A stretch of DNA of 35,614 nucleotides from Plantimonas leprariae (GTDB lineage: Bacteria > Pseudomonadota > Alphaproteobacteria > Rhizobiales > Rhizobiaceae), in contig NZ_VZDO01000028.1 of NCBI RefSeq assembly GCF_008802405.1, positions 1-35,614 on the forward strand, written 5' to 3'. Shown here piece by piece: positions 1-25,185 of this stretch. The position numbers were made by a program, and so were the translations under genes. Every line of letters starts with the position of its first letter. Positions within the stretch are counted from its first letter, which is position 1. The notes under the pieces were generated by a model that searched no databases, had not been told where the DNA came from, and saw only the letters and a program-made list of their open reading frames with translations.

Positions 1-141
1 GTCGAAACCGATCACCCGGAAGCCGGCACGGCAGGCGGTCAGCGCCAGCGGAATACCGACATAGCCGAGACCGATGATGCCCACCGTGTAATCACGGTTT
101 CGTATGCGTTCGATCAGGTTGGCAGCGATCTCGGCGGTCAT
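1..141 (-). CDS. UDP-sugar (UDP-GlcNAc/UDP-hexose) 6-dehydrogenase, N-terminal fragment
   Basis: Only the first 47 codons are present; the gene runs off the left edge. The complement starts with ATG at 141 and reads MTAEIAANLIERIRNRDYTV, followed by GIIGLGYVGIPLALTACRAG. The GxGYVGxP loop is the NAD-binding signature of the UDP-glucose/GDP-mannose dehydrogenase family, and the longer N-terminal helix before it resembles the WbpA/TviB-type UDP-HexNAc dehydrogenases. Such enzymes oxidise C6 of a nucleotide sugar to a carboxylate in the cytoplasm, giving the uronic acid that the amidotransferases and SDRs of this locus could use. It is divergent from the gene at 514 and shares the intergenic region with it. 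The family call is firm; the exact substrate cannot be read from this fragment. Confidence 0.85.
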   Translation of the reverse strand, partial: MTAEIAANLIERIRNRDYTVGIIGLGYVGIPLALTACRAGFRVIGFD

Positions 142-513: not shown

Positions 514-2448
514 ATGTGCGGAATAGCTGGGATCATGTCGCTGACCGGCGTGCCGGTCGATGGCTTGGCGCAAAAGCTGCGCGTGATGAACGCGCTCATC
601 GCTCATCGCGGACCCGACGGCCAGGGCATCTGGCTGGCCAAGAACCACTCCGCCGGCCTTGCCCATCGACGGCTTTCGATCATCGATCTCTCGGAGCATG
701 GCGCCCAGCCGATGATCGGCGCGGACGGCTCGGTCATCACCTTCAACGGCGAGATCTACAATTATCTCGAGTTGCGCGAGACGCTGCGGACGCGGTGGGA
801 TTTTCGTTCCCATTCCGACACCGAGACGATTCTCGCGGCGCATTCGCACTGGCAGCAAGGCTGCCTCGACCATCTGCAGGGCATGTACAGCTTCGCAATC
901 TGGCGGGACGGCGAGCTCCTGGCGGCGCGCGACCCGTTCGGCATCAAGCCGTTCTACTATGCCGAGGTCGCGGGCACGCTGTATTTCGCGTCGGAGATCA
1001 AGGCGCTTCTTCCGTTTCTGCCGGAGATCGAGACGGATGCGGACGCTCTCGCCGAGTACCTGACCTTCCAGTACCAGATCGGTTCCGGCAATCTTTTCCG
1101 CCACGTCCAGACCCTGCTGCCCGGCCACCGCCTGCGCGTCGCCAACGGTCGCGCGGTCGTGGAACGCTACTGGGACGTCCATTACGACATCGACTACAAT
1201 CATACCTCCCGGTACTTCGAAGAGCGGCTTCGGGAGATCGTCGCCGTCAGCATGGAGCGCCATATGCGCTCGGACGTGCCTGTCGGCGCCTACATCTCCG
1301 GCGGCATCGATTCAAGCCTGATCGCGGCACTGGCCAGCGATCATCCGCAATCGGCCCGCTCCGGCTTTCATGGCAAGTTCCTCGAGTCTCCCGCCTATGA
1401 TGAAAGTCGTTACGCCGCCGCTGCGGCGGAGAAGGCGGGCATCGAACTCCATCAGGCGGCGATCACCGCCGACGACTTCCGGAATTCGATCTTCAAGGTC
1501 ATGCATCACCTCGACCATCCGGTCGCCGGTCCGGGCTCCTTCCCGCAGTACATGGTGTCCGAACTGGCTGCCAAACACGTCAAGGTCGTGCTCGGCGGAC
1601 AGGGAGGCGACGAGATCTTCGGAGGTTACGCCCGCTATCTGGTGGCGTATCTCGAACAGGCGCTGAAGGCGTCGATCAACGGCACGTATCGCAACGGCAA
1701 CTTCGTCGTGACGCCGGAATCGATCATTCCGAACCTCGCCGTGCTGCAGGAATACGTGCCGCTCCTGCGCCAGTTCATGGCCGAAGGCCTCTTCGGCAAT
1801 ATCGACGAGCGCTATTTCCGCCTCGTCGGCCGCTCCAACGACATGCAGGAGGAGGTCGACTGGCGGGCGCTCGACATGGCGGGCGTGATGGAGCGCTACA
1901 AGGGCGTCTTCAATTCCGTCCGCAACGTGCGCAAGGAGGCCTATTTCGACTCGATGACGCATTTCGATTTCAAGTGCCTGCTCCCGGCCCTCCTCCAGGT
2001 CGAGGACCGCATGTCGATGGCGCACGGACTGGAAGCGCGCGTGCCGCTGCTCGATCGCGATCTCGTCGAGTTCGCCGCGACGATCCCCGCCGACATCAAA
2101 TTTCCCGGTGGCCGGATGAAGCATCTCCTGAAGGAGTTCTCGCGGCCGCACCTGCCCGAAGCCGTCATGAACCGGCGCGACAAGATGGGCTTCCCGGTGC
2201 CGCTCAAGGAATGGTTCTCCGGCCCTCTGCGCGATTTCGTGCAGGACATCTTCTCGAACCAAGCCGCCAAAAGCCGGTCCTACCTCGACAACGCCGCGAT
2301 CCTGAAGAACTTCGACGCGGGCGGCCAGTTCTCGCGCAAGACCTGGGGGCTGCTGTCGCTCGAGATCTGGCATCAGCTCTTCCACGACCGGTCGGCCGAG
2401 TATCAGAACATGGTCCGGATGGACGAGATCGTGGCGCCCGCTGCCTGA
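514..2448 (+). CDS. asnB: AsnB-type glutamine amidotransferase/asparagine synthetase-like protein 1
   Basis: 644 residues. The protein begins MCGIAGIM, so Cys2 is the N-terminal nucleophile of a class II glutamine amidotransferase domain (about residues 2-215, with HRGPDGQG, NGEIYNYLELRE and RDPFGIKPFYY). The synthetase half follows, with the ATP-pyrophosphatase loop SGGIDSS at 262-268, GGQGGDEIFGGY and EDRMSMAHGLEARVPLLD. Family members activate a carboxylate with ATP and transfer ammonia from glutamine to give a primary amide. Some make asparagine; others in O-antigen loci (for example WbpS of Pseudomonas) amidate sugar uronic acids. The direct downstream SDR genes and the upstream sugar dehydrogenase favour uronic-acid amidation, which is an inference. 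It is one of three paralogues here. The start is set by Cys2, with AGGTG upstream. The gene is intact. Confidence 0.93.
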   Translation: MCGIAGIMSLTGVPVDGLAQKLRVMNALIAHRGPDGQGIWLAKNHSAGLAHRRLSIIDLSEHGAQPMIGADGSVITFNGEIYNYLELRETLRTRWDFRSHSDTETILAAHSHWQQGCLDHLQGMYSFAIWRDGELLAARDPFGIKPFYYAEVAGTLYFASEIKALLPFLPEIETDADALAEYLTFQYQIGSGNLFRHVQTLLPGHRLRVANGRAVVERYWDVHYDIDYNHTSRYFEERLREIVAVSMERHMRSDVPVGAYISGGIDSSLIAALASDHPQSARSGFHGKFLESPAYDESRYAAAAAEKAGIELHQAAITADDFRNSIFKVMHHLDHPVAGPGSFPQYMVSELAAKHVKVVLGGQGGDEIFGGYARYLVAYLEQALKASINGTYRNGNFVVTPESIIPNLAVLQEYVPLLRQFMAEGLFGNIDERYFRLVGRSNDMQEEVDWRALDMAGVMERYKGVFNSVRNVRKEAYFDSMTHFDFKCLLPALLQVEDRMSMAHGLEARVPLLDRDLVEFAATIPADIKFPGGRMKHLLKEFSRPHLPEAVMNRRDKMGFPVPLKEWFSGPLRDFVQDIFSNQAAKSRSYLDNAAILKNFDAGGQFSRKTWGLLSLEIWHQLFHDRSAEYQNMVRMDEIVAPAA

Positions 2449-2482
2449 GGCGGGCGGCAGGACGCAGAACACAGGAGATACC

Positions 2483-3436
2483 ATGAAGCTGCTCGTGACC
2501 GGAGGTTTTGGCCAGGTCGGCTCGACCGTAGCAAATCTGGCGCTCGCGCGGGGCGATGACGTCCTGTCGATAGACAATTTCGCGACGGGACGGCGCGACA
2601 ACCTCGACGATCACCCCCGGCTGACCGCCGTCGAGGGCTCGATCGCCGACCCGGCTCTCGTCGCCGAGCAGTTCGAAACCTTTCGCCCCGATGTCGTGAT
2701 CCATACGGCGGCGTCCTACAAGGACCCGGACGACTGGCATTCGGATACGCTCGTGAACGCCCTCGGGACGGCGAACATCGCGAAGGCCTGCAAGGACCAC
2801 GGCGTCAAGCGGCTCGTCTATTTCCAGACCGCGCTCTGCTACGGCACCAAGCCTCTCACCTCGCCGATCACGCTCGATCATCCGATCGACCCCGTGAACT
2901 CGTCCTACGCGATCTCGAAGACCTGCGGCGAACATTACGTTCAGTTCAGCGGGGTCGACTGGGTCACCTTCCGCCTCGCCAACGTCATCGGCGAGCGCAA
3001 CGTTTCCGGTCCGCTGCCGATCTTCTACGGCCGGCTCGCCAAGCGGCAGAAATGCTTCGTCACCGAAGCGCGGCGCGACTTCTGCTACGCCGGCGACCTC
3101 GCGAAAGTCGTCGTCCGCGCCGCCGATGGGGCGGGCCGCGGAACCTATCACTTCTCCTCCGGCAAGGACGTCGCCATCAAGGAACTCTACGATGCCGTCG
3201 TGCGGGCGATGAAGTTGAACGATTACCCCGAACCCGAGGTTCGGCCGCTCGGTCCGGACGACGCGGCCTCCATCCTCCTCGATCCCTCGCGCCTCATGGC
3301 GGATTTCGGCAACGTCGAATTCACCTCGTTGGACGACATCGCGCGGACCGCCGTCGAACGCTGGGAGACGGCTGGGGTCGTCGGCGGTTACACCCACCTG
3401 AAGGAGGCGCGGGGCCCGATCGAGGGTTCGCGGTGA
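2483..3436 (+). CDS. Extended SDR nucleotide-sugar epimerase/dehydratase 1 (WbmG/WbmH-like)
   Basis: 317 residues. The Rossmann loop TGGFGQVG (Gly7, Gly10, Gly13) and Asp31 in SIDNFATG indicate NAD binding. The catalytic triad appears complete: Thr116 in FQTALCYG, then Tyr142 and Lys146 in SSYAISK. This is the extended SDR family that acts on nucleotide sugars by oxidoreduction at C4. A TYK triad fits a 4-epimerase or related oxidoreductase. An AGGAGA ribosome-binding site precedes the ATG. The stop overlaps the GTG of the next gene (GTGA), and that gene encodes a clear paralogue of the same length, so the pair probably arose by tandem duplication. Both share A-A-x-Y-K-x-P-D-D-W and TALxYG. 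In Bordetella, WbmG and WbmH are adjacent SDRs with TYK triads. The family call is firm; the substrate is inferred to be a UDP-uronic acid or its precursor. Confidence 0.9.
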   Translation: MKLLVTGGFGQVGSTVANLALARGDDVLSIDNFATGRRDNLDDHPRLTAVEGSIADPALVAEQFETFRPDVVIHTAASYKDPDDWHSDTLVNALGTANIAKACKDHGVKRLVYFQTALCYGTKPLTSPITLDHPIDPVNSSYAISKTCGEHYVQFSGVDWVTFRLANVIGERNVSGPLPIFYGRLAKRQKCFVTEARRDFCYAGDLAKVVVRAADGAGRGTYHFSSGKDVAIKELYDAVVRAMKLNDYPEPEVRPLGPDDAASILLDPSRLMADFGNVEFTSLDDIARTAVERWETAGVVGGYTHLKEARGPIEGSR

Positions 3437-4386
3437 GACGCATCCTTCTCACGGGCGGCGCCGGCTGTCTCGGCTCCAACCTCGCCGAGCGTTTCATCGA
3501 CGCGGGCGACGCGGTGTACGTGCTCGACAATTTCGCGACCGGCCAGCGCGCATCGCTGCCCGACGAACACGACCGCCTGACGGTGCGGGAGGGATCGGTC
3601 TCCGACCGATGGACGGTAGACGACGTGTTCACGGAGTTCGAACCGACCCACGTCGTTCACAGCGCCGCCGCCTACAAGAATCCGGACGATTGGGCGACCG
3701 ACGACGCGGTCAACGTCGGCGGCACGATCAATGTCGTGCGCGCGGCGGAGGCGGCGGGCGTCCGGCGGCTTCTCAACTTCCACACCGCGCTCGGCTACGG
3801 CCGGCCCGAGCAGGTCCCGATCGCGGTATCGGCGCCGGCTCGTCCCTTCACGAGCTACGGCATCTCCAAGCAGGCCGGCGAGAACTACCTCGCCATGTCA
3901 AAGCTGCCCTGGGTCTCGTTGCGCCTGGCGAACGTCACCGGTCCGCGCCTCGCCATCGGGCCGATCCCGACCTTCTACACGCGCCTGAAAGCCGGCAAGA
4001 GCTGTTTCTGTTCGCGCACCGTTCGGGACTTCGTCGACATGGAGGACTTCTTCGCCGTCGTCGATCTCGCCCTCGCGGACGAGGCGCCGACCGGGCGGTT
4101 CAACGTATCGACCGGGACCGGACATTCCATCCGCGAGATCTTCGACATCGTCGTCCAGCATCTTGGCCTCCCGAAGCAGGACGTGCCGGAGGTGGATGCT
4201 GGGCCGGACGACGTCGAGAAGGTGGTTCTCGACCCGTCCGAGACGATCGCGGCCTTCGGCTGGCGGCCGCGGTATTCCTTCGCGGACACGATCCGGCGCA
4301 TGCTCGCCTGGTACGACACGCACGGCGTCACCACGATCTACAGCCATGTCCGCCGGCCGGAAGGTCACGGCGAGGCCACCCGATGA
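3433..4386 (+). CDS. Extended SDR nucleotide-sugar epimerase/dehydratase 2 (tandem paralogue)
   Basis: 317 residues from a GTG start that overlaps the previous stop as GTGA; the end overlaps the next start as ATGA, so translation of the three SDR genes is probably coupled. The Rossmann loop is TGGAGCLG (Gly8, Gly11, Gly14), with LDNFATGQR after it. Thr118 in FHTALGYG, Tyr142 and Lys146 in TSYGISK make a complete TYK triad, with Tyr and Lys at exactly the same positions as in the upstream paralogue. The two differ mainly in small gaps between the Thr and Tyr motifs and in the residues around TALxYG (Cys versus Gly), which may separate their substrates. An ATG far upstream in the same frame (3052) lies inside the preceding gene and is not the start. 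Role: cytoplasmic nucleotide-sugar conversion, substrate unknown. Confidence 0.9.
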   Translation: MRRILLTGGAGCLGSNLAERFIDAGDAVYVLDNFATGQRASLPDEHDRLTVREGSVSDRWTVDDVFTEFEPTHVVHSAAAYKNPDDWATDDAVNVGGTINVVRAAEAAGVRRLLNFHTALGYGRPEQVPIAVSAPARPFTSYGISKQAGENYLAMSKLPWVSLRLANVTGPRLAIGPIPTFYTRLKAGKSCFCSRTVRDFVDMEDFFAVVDLALADEAPTGRFNVSTGTGHSIREIFDIVVQHLGLPKQDVPEVDAGPDDVEKVVLDPSETIAAFGWRPRYSFADTIRRMLAWYDTHGVTTIYSHVRRPEGHGEATR

Positions 4387-5456
4387 GCTCGCCCTCCATG
4401 CCTTCCTTCGAAAACGCCCGGATCCTCGTCGTCGGCGGCGCGGGCTTCGTCGGCTCGAATCTCGTCAAGGCGATCCTGAAGGACCGTCCGGAGCGCCTGA
4501 CGATCGTCGACAACTTCCTGTCCGCCGATCCCGTGAACGTTCCGGACGATCCGGCCATGCACCTGGTATCGGGCTCGATCACCGATGAGCGCGTGCTAAG
4601 CGATCTCGGCGGCGATCTCGACTATGTCTTCCATCTCGCCTGCTTCCACGGCAACCAATCCTCGATCGCCGATCCGATCGCGGACCACGACAACAACACG
4701 CTGACGACGCTGAAGCTGTTCGAACGCCTGAAGGATAGCCGCTCGCTCCGCAAGGTCGTCTACGCGGCGGCCGGCTGCGCGGTGGCGGAGAAGACCTTCG
4801 AGGGCGCCAGCGCGACGCGCGAGGATGCGCCGGTCTCGCTCTACCACGACAGTCCCTATTCCATCTCGAAGCTCGTCGGCGAGATGTACGGCAACTACTA
4901 CTGGGCGCGGCACGGCCTGCCATTCGTGAAGGCGCGCTTCCAGAACGTCTACGGACCCGGCGAAATCCTCGGTGCCGGCCGCTGGCGCGGCACCGCGCAT
5001 ACCGTATGGCGCAACGTGACACCGACCTTCGTTTGGCGCGCTCTGCACGGCGAAGCGCTGCCGGTGGAGAACGGCGGCATCGCGACCCGCGACTTCATCT
5101 TCGTCGAGGACATGGCGCGCGGTCTGATGGCGGCGGCGCTTCGAGGCGAACCCGGCGAGATCTACAATCTCGGCTCGGGGGTCGAGACGACGGTCCGCGA
5201 TCTCGCCGAGCGGATCAATCGCCATGCCGGCAACGCGACGCCGATCGCCCTCGCCCCGCCGCGAGACTGGGACCGCTCCGGCCAGCGTTTCGCCGATACG
5301 ACGAAGGCGAAGGCGAAGCTCGGTTTCGAAGCCGCCGTCGACCACGACGCCGGCATAGCCCGCACCGTCGCCTGGACCCGCGAGAACAAGGACACGATCC
5401 TGCGCTGCATGCTGCAGCACCGTCATTTCGTGCCGGAAGTGGGACGATATGCATAA
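4383..5456 (+). CDS. Extended SDR with Cys/His active site instead of Ser/Thr (WbmF-like, possible sugar 3,5-epimerase)
   Basis: 357 residues, starting at an ATG that overlaps the preceding stop (ATGA). The Rossmann loop VGGAGFVG and Tyr/Lys in SPYSISKLVGE place it in the extended SDR family. The residue that is normally Ser/Thr in the triad is in the stretch AAAGCAVAEK, where Cys132 stands near that position. His89 lies in ACFHGNQSS. From memory of the Bordetella structures, WbmF lacks the Ser/Thr of the triad and instead has Cys133 and His90, features of GDP-mannose 3,5-epimerase-type chemistry. The near-identical spacing here supports a WbmF-like role, inverting centres of a UDP-uronic acid toward an L-sugar. 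That role is an inference; the SDR family call is secure. It is a different branch from the two SDRs before it and overlaps the next gene by eight bases. Confidence 0.88.
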   Translation: MSSPSMPSFENARILVVGGAGFVGSNLVKAILKDRPERLTIVDNFLSADPVNVPDDPAMHLVSGSITDERVLSDLGGDLDYVFHLACFHGNQSSIADPIADHDNNTLTTLKLFERLKDSRSLRKVVYAAAGCAVAEKTFEGASATREDAPVSLYHDSPYSISKLVGEMYGNYYWARHGLPFVKARFQNVYGPGEILGAGRWRGTAHTVWRNVTPTFVWRALHGEALPVENGGIATRDFIFVEDMARGLMAAALRGEPGEIYNLGSGVETTVRDLAERINRHAGNATPIALAPPRDWDRSGQRFADTTKAKAKLGFEAAVDHDAGIARTVAWTRENKDTILRCMLQHRHFVPEVGRYA

Positions 5457-6597
5457 GGGTCGACATGCCGCCGGTCTGTTCCCAGTTGTTTCCCTCCTCG
5501 TCGTGTCGTTGCTGTTTCCGAGCGCCGGCGCCGCGGCCGATCCGATACCGGAAAGCGGCCTCGCTGCGGCGCGCAGTTGGTTTCAGCGACATGCTGGGTC
5601 GTCGGAGGCGATGACGGCGTATTCCACGGAAGAGAAGGCCAAACGTTTGACGCAGGCCGTCTACTCCTTCTGCGAGGATGGCACGCAACCCGCCGACCCC
5701 GACCAGTTGTTCGATCGCTGCACCGCCGCTTGCGGCGGGCGTTCATACGTGCTTCGCGGCCTTTTGGAAGCGATCGGCGTCGAAACGCGCTTCGCCGAAC
5801 TCTACAACATACCCAATCAAGGAAATCACACGGCGATCGAGGTCAAGGTCGGTCAAGGGTGGTCGCTTTTCGATCCGACCTTCGGCGCCTACTTCGCGCC
5901 GGACGGATCGGTCGAGGCCAACGCGCTTTCCCTGCAGGACGTTGCCTATCGATATCCGAAGGGAAGCCTGGGCGGCCACGTTCTGCAGGCGCGGAAAGAG
6001 CCGATGAGCTTCGCCACGGATAAGCTGCAGAAGCTCTTCGACGGCAAGTTCGACCACCAGTTCATGTCTTTGGAAAACTATCAGGTGGCCGAGCAGATCA
6101 CGACGGGGGAAGAAGGCTTCAGCTTGAGCCTCGACATACCTCTTACCCTGTCGAACGGCGAAGGCGGCATCGGCGCACGCGAGATCGCCGATATCGACAC
6201 TTTATCGAAGCAATGGCTTTCCGCGACGAACGACACCTTGAACGACGACGACCCTCTGAACGACGTCTCATACAATTCGAGCATACTTGCCAGTGGCGAG
6301 ATACGGAAAACGACGACGCTTTCGTTGTTCGGACTCGAGGCTGGCCATCGATACGAGCTTGAGTTGATTCTTCATGGCGAAGGTGCCGACGACAGGATAC
6401 AGGTAATCGGCATCGGCAAGGGGGTCGAGTATGCGGCGGTCGGCGGCATCGACTTGGGCGACAAGTCGGTGAAAGCCCGGAACAGCTTCGTTCCGCTCCG
6501 CGACACGGCGCAGTTCCGGCTGCGGAACATGTCGGCCGTCGGACAGGCCCGCGTGCTCGGCATCCGCGTGCGCGAGGCCGACGGTCGGACCGACTGA
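5449..6597 (+). CDS. Exported transglutaminase-fold protein 1 (possible polysaccharide deamidase)
   Basis: 382 residues. An N-terminal signal peptide is visible (basic start, hydrophobic core FPVVSLLVVSLLF, likely cut after AGAAA), so the protein should act in the periplasm or outside. The central part has the transglutaminase-like Cys-His-Asp arrangement: Cys95 in TAACGGRSYVLRGLLEAIGV, His127 in GNHTAIEVKV and Asp142 in LFDPTFGAYF. The last ~170 residues look beta-rich and have no family I recognise. The papain-like transglutaminase superfamily includes WbmE, a periplasmic enzyme that deamidates uronamides of the finished Bordetella O polysaccharide. The position between the SDR trio and a second amidotransferase makes a similar role attractive, but a true cross-linking enzyme or peptidase cannot be excluded. 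The start overlaps the SDR gene by eight bases; GGGA lies four bases upstream. Base composition is visibly less GC-rich than its neighbours. Confidence 0.8.
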   Translation: MHKGRHAAGLFPVVSLLVVSLLFPSAGAAADPIPESGLAAARSWFQRHAGSSEAMTAYSTEEKAKRLTQAVYSFCEDGTQPADPDQLFDRCTAACGGRSYVLRGLLEAIGVETRFAELYNIPNQGNHTAIEVKVGQGWSLFDPTFGAYFAPDGSVEANALSLQDVAYRYPKGSLGGHVLQARKEPMSFATDKLQKLFDGKFDHQFMSLENYQVAEQITTGEEGFSLSLDIPLTLSNGEGGIGAREIADIDTLSKQWLSATNDTLNDDDPLNDVSYNSSILASGEIRKTTTLSLFGLEAGHRYELELILHGEGADDRIQVIGIGKGVEYAAVGGIDLGDKSVKARNSFVPLRDTAQFRLRNMSAVGQARVLGIRVREADGRTD

Positions 6598-6663
6598 TGC
6601 CGACCGCCATGCCTGCCACGCTTCAGAACTGAACGCCGACCGATAGTTGCCGAGCTAAACGAC

Positions 6664-8562
6664 ATGTGCGGACTTTTTGGATCCATCGGTTTCGAGCCGG
6701 ATCGCAGCAGCATCGACCGGATCGGACACCGCGGACCAGATGGAACAGGCTGGCAGGTTTTCGACAGCGCCGGCGGTCCGGTGGCGCTCGGGCACCGCCG
6801 TCTCGCGATCATCGACATCAGCGATGCCGGACTCCAGCCGATGCCGGACGCATCCGGCCGGTTCCAGCTCGTCTTCAACGGCGAGATCTACAACTATCTC
6901 GAACTTCGCGAGGAGATGCGGGCGCGAGGCGAGGTCTTCGTCTCAGACAGCGACAGCGAAGTGCTGCTGCGCGCTTATATGGTCTGGGGCAAGGAATGCC
7001 TGTCGCGCCTGCGCGGGATGTTCGCCTTCCTCATCTGGGACGATCGGGAGAAGACGCTGTTCGCCGCGCGCGACCGCTACGGCATCAAACCCCTCTACGT
7101 CTTCGAAGGCCCTGCCGGCATCGCCTTCGCCTCGGAAATCAAACAGTTCCTGGGCATGTCCGGATGGACGGGACGGATGAATGTCGCACGCGTCCACGAC
7201 TTTCTCGGAGCAGGCATCTCCGATCATACCGAGGAGACGATGTTCGACGGCGTGCGCCAGTTGCGCGGCGGCGAATGCGCGGAAGTCGCGATCGCGGGCC
7301 GTTCGATCCGCACGCGGATCGAACGTTGGTATCCGGCGACCGCCGGTTCGCTCGACATCGGGGAGGAAGAAGCGGCGGAGCGATTCCGTGAGCTCTTCGA
7401 CGAGTCGGTGCGACTGCATCTGCGATCGGACGTCCAGATCGGTTCCTGCCTGTCGGGCGGCCTCGACTCCTCGGCCATCGTCTGCGTGATGGCGCGCGAA
7501 CTCGGAGGTGGCGCGGGGCTCAACACCGTTTCCGCCTGCTATCCGAACAAGGAGGTGGACGAGAAGCCGTTCATGGAGGCGGTCGTGCGGGCGACAGGCG
7601 CCCGGCCGCACTACGTTTTCCCGCGGGCGGATGACGTTTTTGCTCGCGCCGTCGACATCACCTGGCATCAGGACGAGCCTTTCGGCTCCAGTTCCATCTT
7701 CGCGCAATGGTGCGTCTTCGAAGAAGCGAAACGCGCCGGCGTGAAGGTTATGCTGGACGGCCAGGGTGCCGACGAGCAGCTCGCCGGCTATCACGGGTCC
7801 TTCCCCTACTACATGGCCGGATTGCGGAAGGATCGCTTGCGACGCCAGATCGTCCGCACGATCCTCGAGCGCAAACGCTACCATGGCACGCCGATCGCAC
7901 CTTTGATACGCGAGTATCTTCTGCCGCTGCTGCCCACCGAGATGGCCGGGCGGATCGCCGCGCGCCTGCCTGGCACGGTGCCCGCCCCTGCGGCTCGGGA
8001 CTGGCTGTCCGGACCCGCCATCCGAGAGAGCGGCAACCCGAAGGGCGCGTTCCCACTGGCCACCGAGCGGCTGGACCTGCCGCCGGTCGAGGACCTACGC
8101 AGCCTCTGCCTGACCCTGACCTACGCCTCGAACCTCCAGATGCTTCTGCACTGGGAGGATCGCAATTCGATGGCGCATTCGATCGAGGCGCGGGTTCCCT
8201 TCCTCGATCATCCCCTGGTGGAGTTCACTCTGGCGCTCGGCAACAGCCACAAGATCGTCGGCGGCGATACGAAGCGCGTGCTGCGGCGGGCGATGCGCGG
8301 GGTGCTGCCGCACCGGGTGCGCGAGCGTCGCGACAAGCTCGGCTTCGCAACGCCCGAACAGGCATGGTTCCGGGGACCGCTCAAGGGTCTGGTGCACGAC
8401 GGCGTGGAGGCCAGCCTTCGACGCTTTCCCGAGCTCTTCGACGCGAACGAGACGCGCGGTCTCGTCGGTGACATGCTCGAAGGGCGGCGGCCGGTGGATT
8501 TCACGCTCTGGCGGATCGTGAACATGAGCATCTGGGGCGAGCGCTTCGGCATCGCCGCCTGA
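6664..8562 (+). CDS. asnB: AsnB-type glutamine amidotransferase/asparagine synthetase-like protein 2
   Basis: 632 residues beginning MCGLFGSIG, with Cys2 as nucleophile of the glutaminase domain, then HRGPDGTG, GHRRLAIIDIS, NGEIYNYLELRE and RDRYGIKPLYVF. The synthetase half carries SGGLDSS at 264-270, LDGQGADEQLAGYHGS and EDRNSMAHSIEARVPFLD, so both active sites look intact. The substrate-pocket region differs from the first copy (WHQDEPFGSSSIFAQW instead of LDHPVAGPGSFPQY), which suggests a different acceptor rather than a recent duplicate. It follows the exported transglutaminase-fold gene and precedes a GT4 gene by 12 bases, so it is probably transcribed with them. Housekeeping asparagine synthesis is the alternative role. 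Confidence 0.93.
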   Translation: MCGLFGSIGFEPDRSSIDRIGHRGPDGTGWQVFDSAGGPVALGHRRLAIIDISDAGLQPMPDASGRFQLVFNGEIYNYLELREEMRARGEVFVSDSDSEVLLRAYMVWGKECLSRLRGMFAFLIWDDREKTLFAARDRYGIKPLYVFEGPAGIAFASEIKQFLGMSGWTGRMNVARVHDFLGAGISDHTEETMFDGVRQLRGGECAEVAIAGRSIRTRIERWYPATAGSLDIGEEEAAERFRELFDESVRLHLRSDVQIGSCLSGGLDSSAIVCVMARELGGGAGLNTVSACYPNKEVDEKPFMEAVVRATGARPHYVFPRADDVFARAVDITWHQDEPFGSSSIFAQWCVFEEAKRAGVKVMLDGQGADEQLAGYHGSFPYYMAGLRKDRLRRQIVRTILERKRYHGTPIAPLIREYLLPLLPTEMAGRIAARLPGTVPAPAARDWLSGPAIRESGNPKGAFPLATERLDLPPVEDLRSLCLTLTYASNLQMLLHWEDRNSMAHSIEARVPFLDHPLVEFTLALGNSHKIVGGDTKRVLRRAMRGVLPHRVRERRDKLGFATPEQAWFRGPLKGLVHDGVEASLRRFPELFDANETRGLVGDMLEGRRPVDFTLWRIVNMSIWGERFGIAA

Positions 8563-8574: not shown

Positions 8575-9888
8575 ATGGCGCAACTGCGCGTGGGCATCGT
8601 ATCCCAATCGGTGATTGCCGACGACCCGCGGGTTCGCCGCCAGGGCGACGCCCTCGCCAAGGCCGGCTGGGACGTGGTCGCCTTGGGCATGGATGGCGCC
8701 ACTAGTGCGGCGCCCGACTGGCGCGTCGTGCCGTCGAGCGTCGCCCATGGCATGCCGGATGCGACCATGCCCGACACGGGCTATGCGACCCGCGGCGTTC
8801 GCGCGCTTGCGATCCGTGCGCTCGCGAGGGCGGGCCAGCTGAAACTCCTGTCGCTGTCGCCTTACGAACAATCATTGGTCTCAGTACGCATTGACCCTAA
8901 GCGCGCCGAGACCGTCTACTGGACGATGAACAGTATATTCTGGCATTTCCTCGCGCTGGGCCGCCGCGAAAAGGTCGATCTCTGGCTGGGCAACGACTGG
9001 ACGTCCTTGCCCGTCGTGGCACGTCTGTCTAGGGAAGCCGGTATCCCGTACGCTTACGATACGCACGAGTTGTGCGCCGAGGAGTTCTACGAAGACAAGC
9101 GGTGGAGATTCGTCCAGAAGCCGGTGCGTGTCCTCACCGAAGGTGCCTTCATTCGGGACGCCGGAGTGGTCAGCACCGTTTCGCCGAAGATCGCCGAGCG
9201 CCTCGCCGCGATCCACAGCCTTGACAGAACGCCGCTTTCGATCCGCAGCACCCCGACCTATCAGGAACATCCGTTCCGCCCGACGGGCGAACGCATCCGC
9301 GTTCTCTACCATGGAGCGGTGTGGCAGCATCGCGGTCTCGAAGCCTGTATTCGTTCCGTCGCGGCTTGGCGATCGGAGTTCGACCTGACCATTCGCGGCC
9401 CGATCAGCGATGCTTACCGGGCGGAACTGGAGCAGGAGATCGAACGGAGCGGCGTGGTCGGCCGCGTCACGCTCGCGCCTGCCGTTCCGATGACGGAACT
9501 CGTACGCGAGGCGTCGCGCTTCGATGTCGGCATCTTCGCTCTGCCCGGACACTCCAATCACAATCGCTACGCCCTGCCGAACAAGTTCTTTGAATACGCG
9601 ATGGCCGGTCTTGCCCTGTGCGTCAGCGACCTGCCGGAGATGGCTTCCCTCGTGAACCGGTATCGGCTCGGCACGCTGATCCGCGGCGCCTCCTCCACGG
9701 AGATCGCCGCCGCGATCAATTGTCTAGATCGAGAAACGATCGACAAGGCCAAGCAGAACGCTCTTCTGGCGGCCCGGGAGTTGTGTTGGGAAGAGGAAAG
9801 CCGCAAGATGGTCTCAGCCTACGAGGCGCTCGCGAGAGACGGGGTTGCGCGGATGCCCGCTCGCGACGGCGCTGCACTCGTAGGGTGA
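8575..9888 (+). CDS. GT4-family (GT-B fold) glycosyltransferase A
   Basis: 437 residues, no signal peptide or membrane segment, so cytoplasmic. The N-terminal Rossmann half starts LRVGIVSQSVIADDPRVRRQ and contains YDTHELCAEEFY; the C-terminal half has VLYHGAVWQHRGLE and ALPNKFFEYAMAGLALCVSD, the nucleotide-sugar binding region of GT4-like enzymes. The (Y/F)D(S/T/A)HE and PNK(L/F)F(E/D) motifs recur in the glycosyltransferases at 18387 and 26761, so the three form one subfamily. It would add one sugar to the growing chain from a nucleotide donor; donor and linkage cannot be deduced. Start: ATG with GGGAG seven bases upstream, 12 bases after the amidotransferase stop. Confidence 0.88.
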   Translation: MAQLRVGIVSQSVIADDPRVRRQGDALAKAGWDVVALGMDGATSAAPDWRVVPSSVAHGMPDATMPDTGYATRGVRALAIRALARAGQLKLLSLSPYEQSLVSVRIDPKRAETVYWTMNSIFWHFLALGRREKVDLWLGNDWTSLPVVARLSREAGIPYAYDTHELCAEEFYEDKRWRFVQKPVRVLTEGAFIRDAGVVSTVSPKIAERLAAIHSLDRTPLSIRSTPTYQEHPFRPTGERIRVLYHGAVWQHRGLEACIRSVAAWRSEFDLTIRGPISDAYRAELEQEIERSGVVGRVTLAPAVPMTELVREASRFDVGIFALPGHSNHNRYALPNKFFEYAMAGLALCVSDLPEMASLVNRYRLGTLIRGASSTEIAAAINCLDRETIDKAKQNALLAARELCWEEESRKMVSAYEALARDGVARMPARDGAALVG

Positions 9889-16935: not shown

Positions 16936-17979
16936 TCAGAACGACGCCACGTCCTTCTTCCATTCGTCGAACGCGGTGCGCGTGAAGTCGTACATCAATC
17001 CGGATGCCGCCACTAGAACCATGACCTGCCGGAAATCGGCGACGGCATCGCTGTAGACCTGCGAGCCTGCCTGCGTTCCCGCATGCGAGAAGCGGAACGC
17101 CTTGACCTGCGTGATGCCGTCGGTGACGACATCCCAAGGCGCATCGTAGGCGATCCCGATGTTCGCGTCCAAAGTCCACCAGCGACCGTCGAAATAGGCT
17201 TCGTTGAAGATGTGGGTTCCGGTCGCGATGACCCGCGACTCGATGCCGGCCGCTTCAAGCGCCGATCCGAGCACGATCGTGTAATCGGTGCAGCAGCCGA
17301 TCGGAGAGTTCAGGTAGTCGTCGAAGTTCAGAGAAATCTGCGGCTTGGACTGGCGCTCGTTCAGCGCCGCGCAGCCCGCGGTTCGGATATTATCGTAGTT
17401 GCCGTAGTGCCAGAGGCCGGAGACGAACTGCAAGGCGTTCAGGGCGAAGATCCCTTCCTTCGACGTCGTCGCAACCGCGAGACGCGCATCGTCCGTCGGC
17501 AAGGCGCGCACGACGTCGGCAAACTTGCGCGGCGTGTCTATCCCGGTGCGCCATTGCGATTCGCTGGCCATCGAACTGACCTTGGAGTCGAGATCGAGCA
17601 TCGTCAGCCGATCGAGCGGCCGGGACAGCGCATCCATTGCGGCTGTCGGATCGAGGATCTTGACTTGCCCCAGATATCGGTTGAGCTCGACCTCCGCCCC
17701 CCCGCTCTTCCGGGATTGGATGCCAAGGAACAGGAGGCCGGCTTGCTCCGGCCTCACTTCCAGCACGTGGCTCGACGACCATGTCGCATTCCAGTTCCAA
17801 TCGCCGTTCGCCGACTTGCTGAGAACGCGATACTCATGGTCGTCTGCCGCGTTGCCCAGAACGATCCGCAAGGGTTTGCCGACATAACTCTGCCTCGGTA
17901 GCGCGGACGTGTTCAGGTCCGCCCCGGAGGCGGCTCCTGCCACGACGACGAGAAAGACCGCAAGAAGCGCGCGCAGCAA
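16936..17979 (-). CDS. Exported transglutaminase-fold protein 2
   Basis: 347 residues from TTG 17979, chosen because GGGAGG lies eight bases upstream and the protein then begins with an ideal signal peptide (LLRALLAVFLVVVAGAASG, then ADL). The frame is open to an ATG at 18144, which would bury that signal behind 55 polar residues. A transglutaminase-like triad is visible: Cys229/Cys230 in PIGCCTDYTIVLGSALEAAG, His256 in GTHIFNEAYF and Asp271 in WWTLDANIGI. The double cysteine is unusual; which one is catalytic is unclear, though alignment to the fold favours the first or second by one residue. It shares the fold but little sequence with the protein at 5449, and its domain lies further toward the C-terminus behind a ~200-residue N-terminal part of unknown type. 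Likely periplasmic, acting on amide or peptide bonds of surface material; substrate unproven. First gene of the minus-strand block. Confidence 0.8.
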   Translation of the reverse strand: MLRALLAVFLVVVAGAASGADLNTSALPRQSYVGKPLRIVLGNAADDHEYRVLSKSANGDWNWNATWSSSHVLEVRPEQAGLLFLGIQSRKSGGAEVELNRYLGQVKILDPTAAMDALSRPLDRLTMLDLDSKVSSMASESQWRTGIDTPRKFADVVRALPTDDARLAVATTSKEGIFALNALQFVSGLWHYGNYDNIRTAGCAALNERQSKPQISLNFDDYLNSPIGCCTDYTIVLGSALEAAGIESRVIATGTHIFNEAYFDGRWWTLDANIGIAYDAPWDVVTDGITQVKAFRFSHAGTQAGSQVYSDAVADFRQVMVLVAASGLMYDFTRTAFDEWKKDVASF

Positions 17980-18386
17980 GGACCAAGCCTCCCAATTTCG
18001 CCCGGACGACGAAGATACTCGACGATCGATGACCGATGCGAAGCTCGGCGCCGGAGAAGACGGCCGTTGGCATCCTCGCGCGGCGAAAGAATGTTCGCGA
18101 GGATCCGGCGAGAAAGCCTCCGAGCTGCTTCGTTCAAACAGCATTCCGCGAATGCGTCAATCTACGCGGGCGCGCGTCCGAACGGCTGTGGTGAGCGGCT
18201 TCGGCAGGTTCGATTGATTTATTCGAAGGCCACTCCTATAGCACCGCCGAGCGAGCTGCATTGGCGGCATACCTGCGACAACACGATCTCTCGGCGGGAG
18301 TTTACCTCGCCAGCGCCACTGCAGTTGGGACCTGCGGAGGGCAGCGATCCCTATGGCGTCAGGAACTACATCCGGGAAAGGTGCTC
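17980..18386. promoter_or_regulatory. Divergent promoter region between exported transglutaminase-fold protein 2 and a GT4 gene
   Basis: This 407-base region separates divergent genes and carries no gene I can support. It contains the plus-strand promoter listed at 18214-18242. On the complement a TTGACG lies at 18160-18155, partly overlapped by the small inverted repeat GCATTC-CGC-GAATGC (18141-18155), but no good -10 follows. The in-frame ATG at 18144 lies inside that repeat and is unlikely to be a start. Confidence 0.5.
18214..18242 (+). promoter_or_regulatory. Sigma70-type promoter for the 18387-24140 glycosyltransferase run
   Basis: TTGATT (18214-18219), a 17-base spacer and TATAGC (18237-18242). 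Transcription would start near 18249, giving a leader of about 138 bases before the ATG at 18387. The same TATAGC -10 box occurs before wzm. Confidence 0.45.
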
Positions 18387-21182: not shown

Positions 21183-24140
21183 ATGACCTCGAAGCCCGTT
21201 TTCGGATCGCGACCCTTCGGCAAGCGCGATGCGCGCCTGCTGATCGTAGCCTATTTCGATCCGAACGGCATCGAGACCATCCCTCAGAGCATCGAGGCGT
21301 GGCAGCGCCACAGCCGCCACGAGATTGTTCTCTTCAACCTTTGGCCGGGGCGCGCGGGCCAGGTACTTCTGCCCTCCACGCTGGCTTTGCGCGAGTTCGA
21401 TGGAGTGATCGTCCATCCGACCGTCAGCTACCATCCATCGATCGTCGAGGGTCTGGACGCGCTTCTCCCTCGCGGCTTGGCCGAATTCGACGGCGTCAAG
21501 ATCCTCATGAAGCAGGATGAACAGGTGCTGTCCGGGCGTCTGCCCGGCTTGGTACGTGCGAAGGGCTTCGATCTCGTCATGACCTGCGTGCCGCCGCGCG
21601 AGCAGGAGAAGATATATCCTCGCGCCCTGATCGGAGACGCGCGTCTGTTCCAGACGCTGACCGGCTATGTCGCGCCTGCCATGCGCCAGGGTTTCCGCCG
21701 GCAGGACAAGCGGTTCGCCCTGACCTATCGCGGCTCCCTTCAGCCGCTCGCATTCGGGCGGCTGGGATACGAGAAACGTGGGATCGGCTACCAGATGTCC
21801 GCCTTGCTGGCCAAGCATGCGGACATCCGGTGCGACATTTCCAGCCGGTGGGAGGACCGCATTTCCGGGAAGGCCTGGAGCGAATTCCTCGCCGCGTCGA
21901 ACGTCGTGCTCGGCGTCGAGTCGGGTTCGAACATCTTCGATTTCGACGGCGAAGTCGGGATCCGGTGCTCGGCCTACGAGGCACGGCATGGAAACGAGGA
22001 CCCCTGGTCGCAACGCTACTACGACCGAGCGCACGAGGAATTCCTCCACTCCTTCGAAGGCAACGTCGACTATGCGCAGATTTCGCCGCGCCACTTCGAG
22101 GCGGCGGCGATGGGCGCGGCGCAACTCCTGTACGAGGGGCGTTACTCCGGCATCTTCCGGCCTGGCGAGCACTACTTTCCGCTGGCTCGCGATCTCGTCG
22201 ATCCCAGTGCCATCATCGACTTTCTGAGGGACGAAGCGGCGCAAGGGCGAATGGCGGACCGGGCGTTCGAGGAGATCGTTCTTGCCCCCCGCTATTGGTA
22301 CGAGACATTCGTCTCGCAAGCGGACGATGCGATCGATGAGTGTCTGGCCACGAAGGGCCGCCGCGCAAGGCCGCCCGGTCCGGCGCCCAAGCCTGTCGCC
22401 CACCTGCTTTCGGCGAAGGATCCGATCGGCGATCCCGAGATCGAACGCTTCGTTTCTTCTTTGTCGGCGACGCACGATGTCGTCGTGATCGGCATCCGCG
22501 AGTCCGACGACGCGACCACGGCACCGGTTCTCCAGCGGCGGCGGGACGGCACGAACGTCCTGCGCCTGGGCCGTACCGACCATCGTGCCGACTGGATCCC
22601 CAGTGCGGCACAGCTTGCACAGAAGCCATCCGAAGCGCGCAGCCTTCTCGCCGTTCTCGTCGGCTGTCTCGGAGCGCCGGCCGACGTTCTAGCTGCGCGG
22701 CTCGGAGCGGACATCGCCGTCGAGAGCGAATTGGAGGCGTTCCGCGATCGGTGCCGGCATCTGATCGACGTCAATTCGACCTTTATCGCTGCGATCGGCA
22801 ACCTCGGCGCCCCCGACGTCACCGTCGCATTCGGTCTCGAAGCCCTCTTCGCCGCGATTGCATGTGCCGACGATTTCGGCTGCGAGGCCGCTTATGATGT
22901 CAGCGAGTTCCGACGATTCACGCACGGCGACTTCCAGCACTGGGAAATCGAGTTCTGGCAGACGATCGAGAAGCGTCTTGCAGCGCGCTGCGCGCGGCGC
23001 TTCGCGGACACGCCCCTGTTGGCCGACCTCATGACGAAGGATCAGGGCCACTCGTTCCTCGCATCATCGCACACGACGGACATCGGAACCAGACGCGTGC
23101 GCGGCACCTGCGAACCGGATTTGCGCTGGATCGACCGTCCTCCGCCGGAACGGATTTTCCCGTGCTCGGCACCGGCGGTTGCGTCATCGGTTTTCGGAAA
23201 CCCGCCGGGCAGACGCCTCGTGGATATCGCCTTGGCCTCGCGTGGAGCGTCGATCGTCGGTTCGTCGCCGTTCCACGAGCGGCCAAACGATGCCGACGCG
23301 GTGCTGCGAGCCGAACCCGGCGGATATGCCGCAGCCTTGGCGGATGGCGCTCCGCCATGCTGGGTGGAGATCGATCTCGGCCGCGTCGAAGCGATCGAGG
23401 CGGTGGAGATCGGCTTTCTTGCCGCCAGCGTTCCGGAGGAATTCTCCGTGCTTTGCCGCGACGGGGTAAACCGGCCATGGCGAATTCTCGTCGAACGCTC
23501 GCACAATTCCGCGCAACGCGTTCGAGAGCGGTTCCCCGCCGGGGCGGCGCGATTCCTGCGCTTGATCGCCTTCTCCTTCGCCGGCGTCCAAAATCGCCTG
23601 CTCCTCTCATCGTTTCGCGTCTTCGCGTCCGCAACGGCCGCAACGGCCGCAACAGGGGATCGAGCCGGCCAGCCAACGTCGGCGGAGCAGCGGCAAAGAC
23701 TCGGCGTCCATCTCATGCACGACGTCTCGACAGGCGGATCCGGCTCCCGGGTCGTCGCGTCGTCGCCGTTTAATCCGGACCCTAACGGCGCAGCGGCCGC
23801 CCTGCGGCGGGACGCTGACGGATATGCCGCGGCGCTGAACGAGAGCCCATTCCCGCACTGGCTGGAGATCGATCTCGGTCGTGAGCGGACGATCGGCGCG
23901 ATCGGACTGCGGTTCCTGAATGCGGCGAATTTCGCCAGCGGATTCCGGGTTTCGGGCCGCAGGGAGCCAAGCGAGCCGTGGCATGTCCTGATCGAACGCC
24001 GCGACCATTCCGGCGCGGACGTGCTGGAACGGATCGACCCCGTCGCTGTGCGGTTTCTCCAACTCGAGGCCTTCGCCTTCGCAGGACAGCAGCGCCTGCT
24101 GCTCGCGGCGCTCCATGCCTACGAAATGCCGCAGGATTAG
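21183..24140 (+). CDS. Glycosyltransferase-like protein with an orphan GT4 half and two discoidin-like repeats
   Basis: 985 residues from ATG 21183; the frame opens at 21051 inside the previous gene, but the first 44 residues there look non-coding. Residues ~18-395 match the middle unit of the 953-residue protein (YRGSL, LGVESGSNIFDFDGE at ~243-257, ISPRHFEAAAMGAAQLLYEG). Residues ~403-620 resemble only the N-terminal Rossmann half of the GT4 enzymes here, with YDVSEF at 571-576 where the others have YD(T/S/A)HE, and no C-terminal half follows. Two tandem discoidin-like repeats (~680-828 and ~845-985) each start SSPF and contain GGYAAALA or DGYAAALN, then W(V/L)EIDLGR. No signal peptide, so it is probably cytoplasmic. 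It may extend or modify the glycan while the discoidin modules hold the chain; this is inference. Confidence 0.83.
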   Translation: MTSKPVFGSRPFGKRDARLLIVAYFDPNGIETIPQSIEAWQRHSRHEIVLFNLWPGRAGQVLLPSTLALREFDGVIVHPTVSYHPSIVEGLDALLPRGLAEFDGVKILMKQDEQVLSGRLPGLVRAKGFDLVMTCVPPREQEKIYPRALIGDARLFQTLTGYVAPAMRQGFRRQDKRFALTYRGSLQPLAFGRLGYEKRGIGYQMSALLAKHADIRCDISSRWEDRISGKAWSEFLAASNVVLGVESGSNIFDFDGEVGIRCSAYEARHGNEDPWSQRYYDRAHEEFLHSFEGNVDYAQISPRHFEAAAMGAAQLLYEGRYSGIFRPGEHYFPLARDLVDPSAIIDFLRDEAAQGRMADRAFEEIVLAPRYWYETFVSQADDAIDECLATKGRRARPPGPAPKPVAHLLSAKDPIGDPEIERFVSSLSATHDVVVIGIRESDDATTAPVLQRRRDGTNVLRLGRTDHRADWIPSAAQLAQKPSEARSLLAVLVGCLGAPADVLAARLGADIAVESELEAFRDRCRHLIDVNSTFIAAIGNLGAPDVTVAFGLEALFAAIACADDFGCEAAYDVSEFRRFTHGDFQHWEIEFWQTIEKRLAARCARRFADTPLLADLMTKDQGHSFLASSHTTDIGTRRVRGTCEPDLRWIDRPPPERIFPCSAPAVASSVFGNPPGRRLVDIALASRGASIVGSSPFHERPNDADAVLRAEPGGYAAALADGAPPCWVEIDLGRVEAIEAVEIGFLAASVPEEFSVLCRDGVNRPWRILVERSHNSAQRVRERFPAGAARFLRLIAFSFAGVQNRLLLSSFRVFASATAATAATGDRAGQPTSAEQRQRLGVHLMHDVSTGGSGSRVVASSPFNPDPNGAAAALRRDADGYAAALNESPFPHWLEIDLGRERTIGAIGLRFLNAANFASGFRVSGRREPSEPWHVLIERRDHSGADVLERIDPVAVRFLQLEAFAFAGQQRLLLAALHAYEMPQD

Positions 24141-24209
24141 CGGCTGGGACGGAAGCCTGGGCGGATTTCCGACGACCGGCGGGAATGGCGCGGTTTCGAC
24201 GGCGCGCGC

Positions 24210-24239
24210 TTGCGTCTTCCGAAGCTTCGTTGCTATAGC
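24210..24239 (+). promoter_or_regulatory. Promoter candidate for the wzm-wzt export genes
   Basis: TTGCGT (24210-24215), an 18-base spacer and TATAGC (24234-24239). It lies in the 263-base gap before wzm. The spacer contains the palindrome CGAAGCTTCG (24220-24229), a possible binding site. The leader to the ATG at 24404 would be about 158 bases. Confidence 0.35.
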
Positions 24240-24403
24240 GCCCGCGCGGCGCGAGGCGGTCCGTGGAACGGCGTTGAAGGTTCCAGAGCTGCGGGCAGAG
24301 GGTGGCATCGTCCGTCTTGACCACCGGAACCTGCCGCGTCACGGCAGGCCTGAAATACAGCTGCGCGCGGCGTCGGCGGGCCGCCGAGCGAAAGGAAACT
24401 TCA

Positions 24404-25183
24404 ATGGAGTGGATGCGTCTATATGGACCGCGGCTCTGGAACGCGGTCAAGCACGACGTGCATCAGCGCTATGCGGGCTCGAAGTTCGGCTCACTGTGGG
24501 CCATCCTTTACCCGATGGCGATGCTGGCTTTCTACGCCACGATATACGTCGTCGTGTTTCGCGTCCGCGTCCCCAATCTGACGCCGGCGACCTACACGGT
24601 TCTGGTGATGAGTGGCCTGTCGGCAATCATCATGTTTTCCGAAAGCATTTCCAACGGCCTCAGCGTCATCTCCGGCCAGCGCGCCCTGCTGATGAACACG
24701 GTGTTTCCCGCCGAGTTGCTGCCGCCGCGATCGGTTCTCGCAAGTCAGGTTCCCTCGCTGGCCGCGCTCTGCATCACGAGCGTCGGCGCGATCGTCCTGC
24801 GGTCCGCATCGCCGATCGCGCTTCTCGTCGTGCCGCTCACCTGGATCCTGCTGATTATGTTCATGATCGGGCTCGTCTGGATATTCTCGCTGCTGGCCCT
24901 TGCCTTGCGCGACATCCAGCAGGCCGTCGGCATCGTCAACATGGCGATGATGGTGCTGAGCCCGATGGCCTACACGCCCGACATGGTGCCCGACGCGCTG
25001 AAGTTCATCATCTGGTTCAACCCGATGAGCTATTTCGTGCTTTGCCTGCAGGCGCCGCTCGCGCTCGGAACCTGGCCATCGGCCTTCGCGATGACGGGCG
25101 CTTGCGCGCTTGGGCTAGGGACCTTCCTTGTCGGCTTGTCCTTCTTCCGTCGTGCTCGCTACGCATTCGTGGATTACGCCTGA
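24404..25183 (+). CDS. wzm: Polysaccharide ABC exporter, permease subunit (Wzm-type)
   Basis: 259 residues, the usual length for Wzm/KpsM-type ABC-2 permeases. The start is ATG 24404 with AAGGA seven bases upstream; an in-frame ATG at 24302 would add a basic 34-residue tail. The N-terminal amphipathic stretch (KHDVHQRYAGSKFGSLWAIL) is typical, followed by about six membrane segments such as YPMAMLAFYATIYVVVF, LIMFMIGLVWIFSLLALAL and PMSYFVLCLQAPLAL. It forms the inner-membrane channel that exports a finished lipid-linked polysaccharide, powered by the ATPase encoded two bases downstream. The presence of this system, and no Wzx or Wzy in the window, suggests chains are completed in the cytoplasm before export. 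Confidence 0.93.
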   Translation: MEWMRLYGPRLWNAVKHDVHQRYAGSKFGSLWAILYPMAMLAFYATIYVVVFRVRVPNLTPATYTVLVMSGLSAIIMFSESISNGLSVISGQRALLMNTVFPAELLPPRSVLASQVPSLAALCITSVGAIVLRSASPIALLVVPLTWILLIMFMIGLVWIFSLLALALRDIQQAVGIVNMAMMVLSPMAYTPDMVPDALKFIIWFNPMSYFVLCLQAPLALGTWPSAFAMTGACALGLGTFLVGLSFFRRARYAFVDYA

Positions 25184-25185
25184 CA

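What the first reader, a model, noticed from the sequence alone, without database searches (positions are those of the whole stretch)
514..8562. Amide-on, amide-off module: amidotransferases flanking an SDR trio and an exported transglutaminase-fold protein
Seen: AsnB-type enzyme, three coupled SDRs, a signal-peptide protein with a Cys95/His127/Asp142 triad, then a second AsnB-type enzyme. Known: Bordetella makes a uronamide O antigen with WbmF/G/H, and its periplasmic transglutaminase-superfamily enzyme WbmE removes part of the amides after assembly. Inference: this locus may install amides on uronic acids in the cytoplasm and tune them outside, setting surface charge. A more daring option is that the primary amides serve as acyl donors, so that the exported enzyme cross-links the glycan to amines.
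Basis: partly seen in the sequence, partly recalled or inferred. Interest (0 to 1): 0.85.

Follow-up and report, generated by a model that had tools for sequence, protein, structure and literature searches.

The report
Uronamide module with exported putative deamidase
A bacterium related to Bosea carries the gene block that Bordetella uses to make an unusual amide-bearing coat sugar, plus an exported enzyme that may remove some of those amides after export; the block is of a known kind, the exported partner looks like a rare addition.

Summary
In detail: the six genes are there, a GT4 gene follows, all closely packed on one strand, and the exported protein has the Cys95/His127/Asp142 triad. 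The SDRs match WbmH, WbmG and WbmF one to one (64, 62, 59% to the solved Bordetella enzymes). The window holds a WlbD-like epimerase; another contig of the genome holds WlbA (WbpB), WlbB and WlbC-like genes. [quoted passage not shown] The first AsnB is its partner: an AsnB lies within 1.2 kb 5' of wbmH in 42 of 51 loci, and 40 of 41 of these group together. The exported transglutaminase-fold protein is accessory (seen in 6 of 51 loci, two groups). Between wbmG and wbmF, 6 of 34 loci have an extra gene: 2 of this fold, 4 methyltransferases. Best reading: amide added in the cytoplasm, partly hydrolysed after export, as WbmE does. Homology to WbmE was not testable: no sequence was within reach and structure prediction was off. 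Cross-linking has no support here. The second AsnB lies outside the first one's group, with a GT4 in 8 of 14 loci. Missed earlier: a second exported transglutaminase-fold protein (16936-18144, minus) and a third AsnB.

The parts
514..2448 (+). AsnB1: glutamine-dependent amidotransferase, partner of the WbmHGF block (WbpS-like role inferred)
   Evidence: Asn_synthase 309 bits, GATase_7; an AsnB within 1.2 kb 5' of wbmH in 42 of 51 loci; 40 of the 41 long enough for the tree fall in one split
2483..3436 (+). WbmH homologue (SDR)
   Evidence: 64% identical to 2q1w, 41% to the WbmG chain
3433..4386 (+). WbmG homologue (SDR)
   Evidence: 62% identical to 2pzk
4383..5456 (+). WbmF homologue (SDR, putative 3,5-epimerase)
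   Evidence: 59% identical to 2pzj; A130, C132, H89, N211 match WbmF Ala131, Cys133, His90, Asn213
5449..6597 (+). TG1: exported transglutaminase-fold protein, putative uronamide deamidase
   Evidence: PF01841 27.6 bits; Cys95/His127/Asp142 invariant in 7 proteins, itself included; start overlaps the wbmF stop by 8 bases
6664..8562 (+). AsnB2: second amidotransferase, outside the AsnB1 group
8575..9888 (+). GT4-family glycosyltransferase beside AsnB2
   Evidence: Glyco_trans_4_4 and 1_4; AsnB2-GT4 neighbours in 8 of 14 loci, window included; the GT4 is 3' here and 5' in the other seven
16936..18144 (-). TG2: second transglutaminase-fold protein, export read by eye, other subfamily
   Evidence: PF01841 27.2 bits; profile comparison with the TG1 set Prob 67, E 5e-5
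24115..26754 (+). ORF with Wzt-like ABC ATPase (ABC_tran at residues 407-538); no permease partner identified
   Evidence: Wzt_C and the galactan Wzt model are below their cut-offs
28112..30067 (+). AsnB3: third amidotransferase
   Evidence: Asn_synthase 269 bits; TIGR01536 455 bits
31495..32550 (+). WlbD-like (UDP-GlcNAc3NAcA 2-epimerase), would make the WbmHGF substrate
   Evidence: 389 bits to 8sxv; 4neq 273, the rest of the list outside the 8sx/8sy entries 164 or less. Also above the cut-off of generic wecB TIGR00236, 292 against 210
1..120 (-). N-terminal part of a UDP-sugar dehydrogenase gene cut by the contig end
   Evidence: PF03721 22.9 bits, below its cut-off of 27; sequence printed

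Best explanation
This is a surface-polysaccharide locus that builds 2,3-diacetamido-2,3-dideoxy-L-galacturonamide and then edits the amide outside. WlbA, WlbB, WlbC and WlbD make UDP-D-ManNAc3NAcA. WbmH, WbmG and WbmF invert C3 and C5 to give UDP-L-GalNAc3NAcA. AsnB1 turns the carboxylate into a primary amide with ammonia from glutamine. The sugar enters a chain exported by a Wzt-like ABC transporter. TG1, exported and coupled to WbmF, hydrolyses some amides back to carboxylates through a Cys-His-Asp thioester mechanism, setting the charge of the coat. Shown: gene identities, order, overlaps, conserved active-site residues and the conserved AsnB1-SDR block. Inferred: substrate, which molecule carries the amide when it is made, the transporter, the place of action and the direction of the TG1 reaction.
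For: SDRs match WbmH/G/F at 64/62/59%. WlbD-like epimerase in the window; WbpB/WlbA (396 bits), WlbB-like (226 bits) and a DegT aminotransferase in a row at the start of another contig of the genome. An AsnB within 1.2 kb 5' of wbmH in 42 of 51 loci, 40 of 41 in one split. WbpS makes uronamides (PMC3684757, passage); deleting the AsnB-type gene PGN_1234 abolished the uronamide (PMC7468200, passages). WbmE deamidates uronamide-rich O chains in the periplasm and is a transglutaminase relative (PMC3507681, passages). Transglutaminase-fold genes recur at this block: window, L003, L087, L012, L022, and on the contig of L017. TG1-like proteins were found only in the own genome and in G202, both of which have the block; the profile was built from these.
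Against: No WbmE sequence was at hand. TG1 is at most about 33% identical to the other block proteins, over 86 residues of the core. A TG was found in only 6 of 51 loci, so the block can do without it; B. pseudohinzii L024 has none within its 21 kb, the only PF01841 match of that genome lying about 100 kb from wbmF. The fold is common: PF01841 in 34 of these 40 genomes and in 10 of 14 control genomes. The weak solved-structure matches are a putative cysteine protease (E 0.06) and peptide N-glycanase (E 0.27). The enrichment test is post hoc and modest (P 0.005 to 0.02). Both AsnBs exceed the cut-off of the generic asparagine synthase model, and the epimerase that of wecB.
Confidence: 0.66

Rival explanations
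1. TG1 is a transamidase: it uses the primary uronamide as acyl donor and joins the glycan to amines (other glycans, proteins, polyamines), cross-linking the coat.
For: The same Cys-His-Asp chemistry can transfer to amines (general knowledge); a bacterial domain of this fold, TgpA, was assayed for transglutaminase activity (PMC3507681, figure legend and passage).
Against: The nearest functional precedent, WbmE, is described as a deamidase. The genes scanned with Pfam in the window suggest no amine acceptor.
Confidence: 0.07
2. TG1 is a periplasmic peptidase or regulatory member of the transglutaminase fold, comparable to HvyA of Caulobacter, and does not touch the sugar.
For: HvyA is a transglutaminase homologue with a signal sequence and a catalytic triad that restricts capsulation (PMC4241560, passages). 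The weak solved-structure matches are a putative cysteine protease and PNGase.
Against: HvyA is called BTLCP and lies among export genes; TG1 hits only Transglut_core, overlaps a sugar-nucleotide gene, and distantly related proteins of the fold recur beside or inside the same biosynthetic block.
Confidence: 0.17
3. AsnB1 or AsnB2 makes something other than a uronamide (asparagine or another amidated group), so there is no amide to remove.
For: Both exceed the cut-off of the generic asparagine synthase model TIGR01536 (497 and 406 bits, cut-off 267). AsnB2 lies outside the AsnB1 group.
Against: AsnB1 is tied to the WbmHGF block in loci from several phyla, and one AsnB-type gene beside Wbp-pathway genes was shown by deletion to make a uronamide (PMC7468200, passages).
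Confidence: 0.1

Closest known systems
Bordetella bronchiseptica/parapertussis wbm O-antigen locus (WbmE, WbmF, WbmG, WbmH, WbmI)
   Same: Same three SDRs and the same predicted sugar; a periplasmic transglutaminase-superfamily gene, wbmE, in the same locus. wbmE is missing in some strains (PMC1794550, PMC4497623, PMC12243275, passages), as TG genes are here. In B. pseudohinzii L024 an AsnB1-type gene stands just 5' of wbmH, as here.
   Different: TG1's relation to WbmE is untested, and that WbmI is this AsnB is inferred, not compared. Three AsnBs and two TG-fold proteins in the window.
WbpS of Pseudomonas aeruginosa O6 and PGN_1234 of Porphyromonas gingivalis
   Same: Amidotransferases that make uronamides (PMC3684757, PMC7468200, passages)
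   Different: Not compared by sequence here; those loci were not examined.
HvyA of Caulobacter crescentus
   Same: Transglutaminase homologue with signal sequence and Cys-His-Asp triad, tied to a surface polysaccharide (PMC4241560, passages)
   Different: Described as BTLCP; negative regulator of capsulation; among export genes.
TgpA of Pseudomonas aeruginosa
   Same: Periplasmic transglutaminase domain with the triad (PMC3507681, passages)
   Different: Carries DUF3488, linked to viability; no link to uronamides in the passages seen.

Membership tests
WbmF/WbmG/WbmH trio | Each SDR closest to its own Bordetella counterpart | tested here: met
   59, 62, 64% to its own, at most 42% to the other two. 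PMC2279256 lists these entries without saying there which is which: 2pzj fits WbmF by four named residues and 2pzk fits WbmG by Phe190 (mapped by hand); 2q1w is WbmH by elimination
WbmF/WbmG/WbmH trio | Residues named for WbmF (Ala131, Cys133, His90, Asn213) conserved; YxxxK in WbmG and WbmH | tested here: met
   Alignments read against passages of PMC2279256; mapped by hand with a 20-residue tag offset
WbmF/WbmG/WbmH trio | Source of UDP-D-ManNAc3NAcA in the same cell | tested here: met
   WlbD-like in the window; WbpB/WlbA, WlbB-like and WlbC-like on contig C5. The 6-dehydrogenase step: three PF03721 matches over the cut-off elsewhere in the genome, not assigned, and a cut fragment below it here
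WbmE (periplasmic uronamide deamidase) | Sequence homology to WbmE | not testable with these tools
   No B. bronchiseptica genome recognised: 2 of 15 genomes of the genus of G198 had WbmF, at 88 and 60%, neither with a TG in the stretches examined; WbmE paper not held
WbmE (periplasmic uronamide deamidase) | Transglutaminase-superfamily core with Cys-His-Asp triad | tested here: met
   PF01841 above cut-off; triad invariant in 7 proteins, itself included
WbmE (periplasmic uronamide deamidase) | Export to the periplasm | tested here: inconclusive
   Signal-peptide-like N-terminus read by eye only
WbmE (periplasmic uronamide deamidase) | Gene in a WbmFGH locus | tested here: met
   Overlaps wbmF by 8 bases
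WbmE (periplasmic uronamide deamidase) | Amide hydrolysis on the O chain | not testable with these tools
   Needs chemistry
Cross-linking transglutaminase | Acyl transfer to amines | not testable with these tools
   Needs an assay
BTLCP / HvyA | Match to a BTLCP model | tested here: not met
   Pfam to E 1 lists only Transglut_core; NCBIfam to E 0.1 lists nothing

The most novel reading that the evidence does not exclude
The L-GalNAc3NAcA block has an exchangeable carboxyl-tuning slot: in different bacteria, distantly related exported transglutaminase-fold enzymes, or cytoplasmic methyltransferases, are set into or beside the same AsnB1-wbmH-wbmG-wbmF operon, so that surface charge is changed by swapping one gene. 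In this organism two such exported enzymes may act in one cluster, one of them possibly joining the glycan to amines.
Probability: 0.25. Interest if true: 0.7.

Novelty: new variant of a known kind. Interest (0 to 1): 0.52.

Why it matters
Amide or acid on surface uronic sugars sets charge, and so may affect binding of phages, antibodies and antimicrobial peptides (general knowledge). In the passages seen, deamidation after assembly is told for Bordetella only. If distantly related transglutaminase-fold proteins serve the same sugar block in alphaproteobacteria, Nitrospirae and others, editing amides after export would be a wider strategy. The survey also ties one AsnB group to one sugar block, which would make uronamides predictable from genomes.

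Tried and rejected
WbmE sequence: not found. The paper is not held; the search of 15 genomes of the genus of G198 gave WbmF at 88 and 60% only, and those two loci have no TG in the stretches examined. Plasmids: no match for TG1 or WbmF. Both AsnBs as one on-switch: rejected, since they fall in different parts of the tree. TG1 as a widespread protein: rejected (1 of 198 genomes of the family and 1 of 398 of the phylum, both times the own genome; 1 of 198 genomes of the phylum of G202, which is G202 itself). TG2 as another block protein: no phmmer match at E 1e-5 in the 50 other loci, 1 of 337 order genomes, the own one. Literature on another uronamide-removing transglutaminase: no such title in the listings of searches (open-licence papers only).

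Rows dropped: of the 80 loci listed (109 relatives found), the 40 with 22-32% identity were dropped as other SDRs. Of 12 further WbmF loci fetched, two repeat known contigs (L084 = L005, L085 = L003). That leaves 40 + 10 + the window = 51. The PF01841 matches were not all mapped to the loci, so six loci with a TG is a lower bound. Nine loci lack an AsnB within 1.2 kb 5' of wbmH: L013 and L026 begin at wbmH; L093 has broken frames; L010, L012 and L035 have an AsnB1-type gene elsewhere nearby; L025, L092 and L095 show no AsnB1-type gene in the stretch held. In L090 and L091 another gene lies between AsnB1 and wbmH, and in L037 the AsnB beside wbmH is the one outside the group.
Full report
What is there. 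The six genes of the finding and a following GT4 gene run on + from 514 to 9888, with overlaps of 4, 4 and 8 bases from wbmH to TG1. Pfam gives Asn_synthase and GATase_7 on both AsnBs, Epimerase on the SDRs and Transglut_core on the exported protein (27.6 bits, cut-off 23). Both AsnBs begin MCG and have an SGG(I/L)DSS loop; that these mark an active enzyme is recalled. Both also exceed the cut-off of the generic asparagine synthase model TIGR01536.

The sugar. Each SDR is closest to its own Bordetella counterpart: 64% WbmH, 62% WbmG, 59% WbmF (solved chains). PMC2279256 lists the entries; I assigned 2pzj to WbmF and 2pzk to WbmG by residues named in its passages and 2q1w to WbmH by elimination. 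The residues named for WbmF are conserved. That paper (abstract, introduction and passages read) proposes that the trio turns UDP-D-ManNAc3NAcA, made by WlbD, into UDP-L-GalNAc3NAcA. In this window 31495-32550 matches UDP-2,3-diacetamido-glucuronic acid 2-epimerase at 389 bits; 4neq is 273 and the other listed epimerases 164 or less. Against this, it is also above the cut-off of the generic wecB model. Another contig of the genome starts with a WbpB match (396 bits to 3oa2), a match to 3mqg (226 bits; that this is WlbB is recalled) and a DegT aminotransferase that I call WlbC-like by position. Relatives of the window epimerase are in 23 of the 50 other loci (129-502 bits), not separated there into WlbD and WecB types. 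The sugar prediction is strong but indirect.

The amide. A scan of genome contigs with a WbmF alignment gave 109 relatives, 80 kept. I kept the 40 with 52% or more identity, added 10 further loci and the window: 51. An AsnB lies within 1.2 kb 5' of wbmH on the same strand in 42 of 51; of 41 such proteins long enough for the tree, 40 fall in one split with two others that lie near, but not next to, wbmH (support 0.77). WbmG is found in 35 of 51. Record titles name alpha-, beta- and gammaproteobacteria, Blastocatellia, Nitrospirae, Bacteroidetes, Cyanobacteria and others. AsnB2 lies outside that split; close AsnB2 relatives occur in 14 of 51 loci, window included, with a GT4 next to them in 8. 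[quoted passage not shown]

The exported protein. A transglutaminase-fold gene was found between wbmG and wbmF in L003 and L087, just 5' of wbmH in L012, twice in L022 with one gene between them and AsnB1, and 10.6 kb 3' of wbmF on the contig of L017. With the window this is 6 of 51. By BLAST among themselves they form two groups: L003, L087, L012 and L017 (E 2e-10 or better), and TG1 with the two of L022 (E 1e-11 and 5e-10); TG1 also matches L012 at 6e-8, so the groups are distant relatives, and no tree was made. TG1 and the L022 proteins align over the C-terminal part too (19-22% identity). All seven match only Transglut_core in Pfam at E 1; the L087 one scored 21.4 bits, below the cut-off, when given as the whole frame. 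The family is common: in 34 of the 40 genomes and 10 of 14 controls. With 122 matches in about 171 Mb, 0.3 to 0.6 loci would be expected to have one within 12-20 kb around 40 blocks; 3 did (P 0.005-0.02, post hoc). Of 34 loci with wbmG and wbmF, six have a gene between them: two transglutaminase-fold and four methyltransferases that match one query. TG1-like proteins were seen in 1 of 198, 1 of 398 and 1 of 198 genomes: the own genome and G202, from which the profile was built.

Mechanism. WbmE deamidates uronamide-rich O chains in the periplasm (PMC3507681, passages; the original paper was not available). By position, fold and triad TG1 most likely does the same. Which way the reaction runs, and on what, is inference. 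A transamidation that ties the glycan to amines is possible and untested. wbmE is missing in some Bordetella strains, in line with the accessory pattern here. Export through the Wzt-like ATPase is inferred; its permease was not identified, and Wzt_C is below its cut-off.

Rivals. HvyA shows that a transglutaminase homologue with a signal sequence can control capsulation, so a regulatory or peptidase role stays possible. The profile search of solved structures is too weak to decide.

Verdict. The core is a known kind of sugar pathway, here in a member of the order of Bosea (the L003 contig, a Bosea record, comes back as 'same order'). The exported partner is a new variant. The use of one slot by transglutaminase-fold or methyltransferase genes is the most interesting observation, from few loci.

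Noticed in passing
window 16936-18144 (-): A second transglutaminase-fold protein with a Cys-His-Asp set and a signal-peptide-like stretch (by eye), of another subfamily; no match in 50 other WbmF loci and 1 of 337 order genomes, the own one.
   Followed up: partly
window 28112-30067 (+): Third AsnB-type amidotransferase in the same cluster.
   Followed up: no
L088, L089, L090, L092 between wbmG and wbmF: A methyltransferase sits where L003 and L087 have a transglutaminase-fold gene; L090 and L091 have another methyltransferase between AsnB1 and wbmH.
   Followed up: partly
L024 (Bordetella pseudohinzii): Carries AsnB1-wbmH-wbmG-wbmF with WbmF 88% identical to the solved one. PMC5045587 (passage) reports the wbm locus absent from all non-classical bordetellae it studied; B. 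pseudohinzii is not named in it.
   Followed up: partly
window 34445-35371 (+): Protein with a D-glucuronyl C5-epimerase C-terminal domain (46.9 bits), possibly another uronate-modifying step.
   Followed up: no
window 10060-12266 (+): A 604-residue protein without Pfam match followed by a DCC1-like thiol-disulfide protein, in a stretch of lower G+C.
   Followed up: no
window 32667-34289 (+): RTX-repeat M10 metallopeptidase at the edge of the cluster.
   Followed up: no
window 1-120 (-): The first 60 bases of the contig equal the reverse complement of the last 60 of contig C20, both inside a UDP-sugar dehydrogenase reading, so the assembly may break at a repeated gene.
   Followed up: partly
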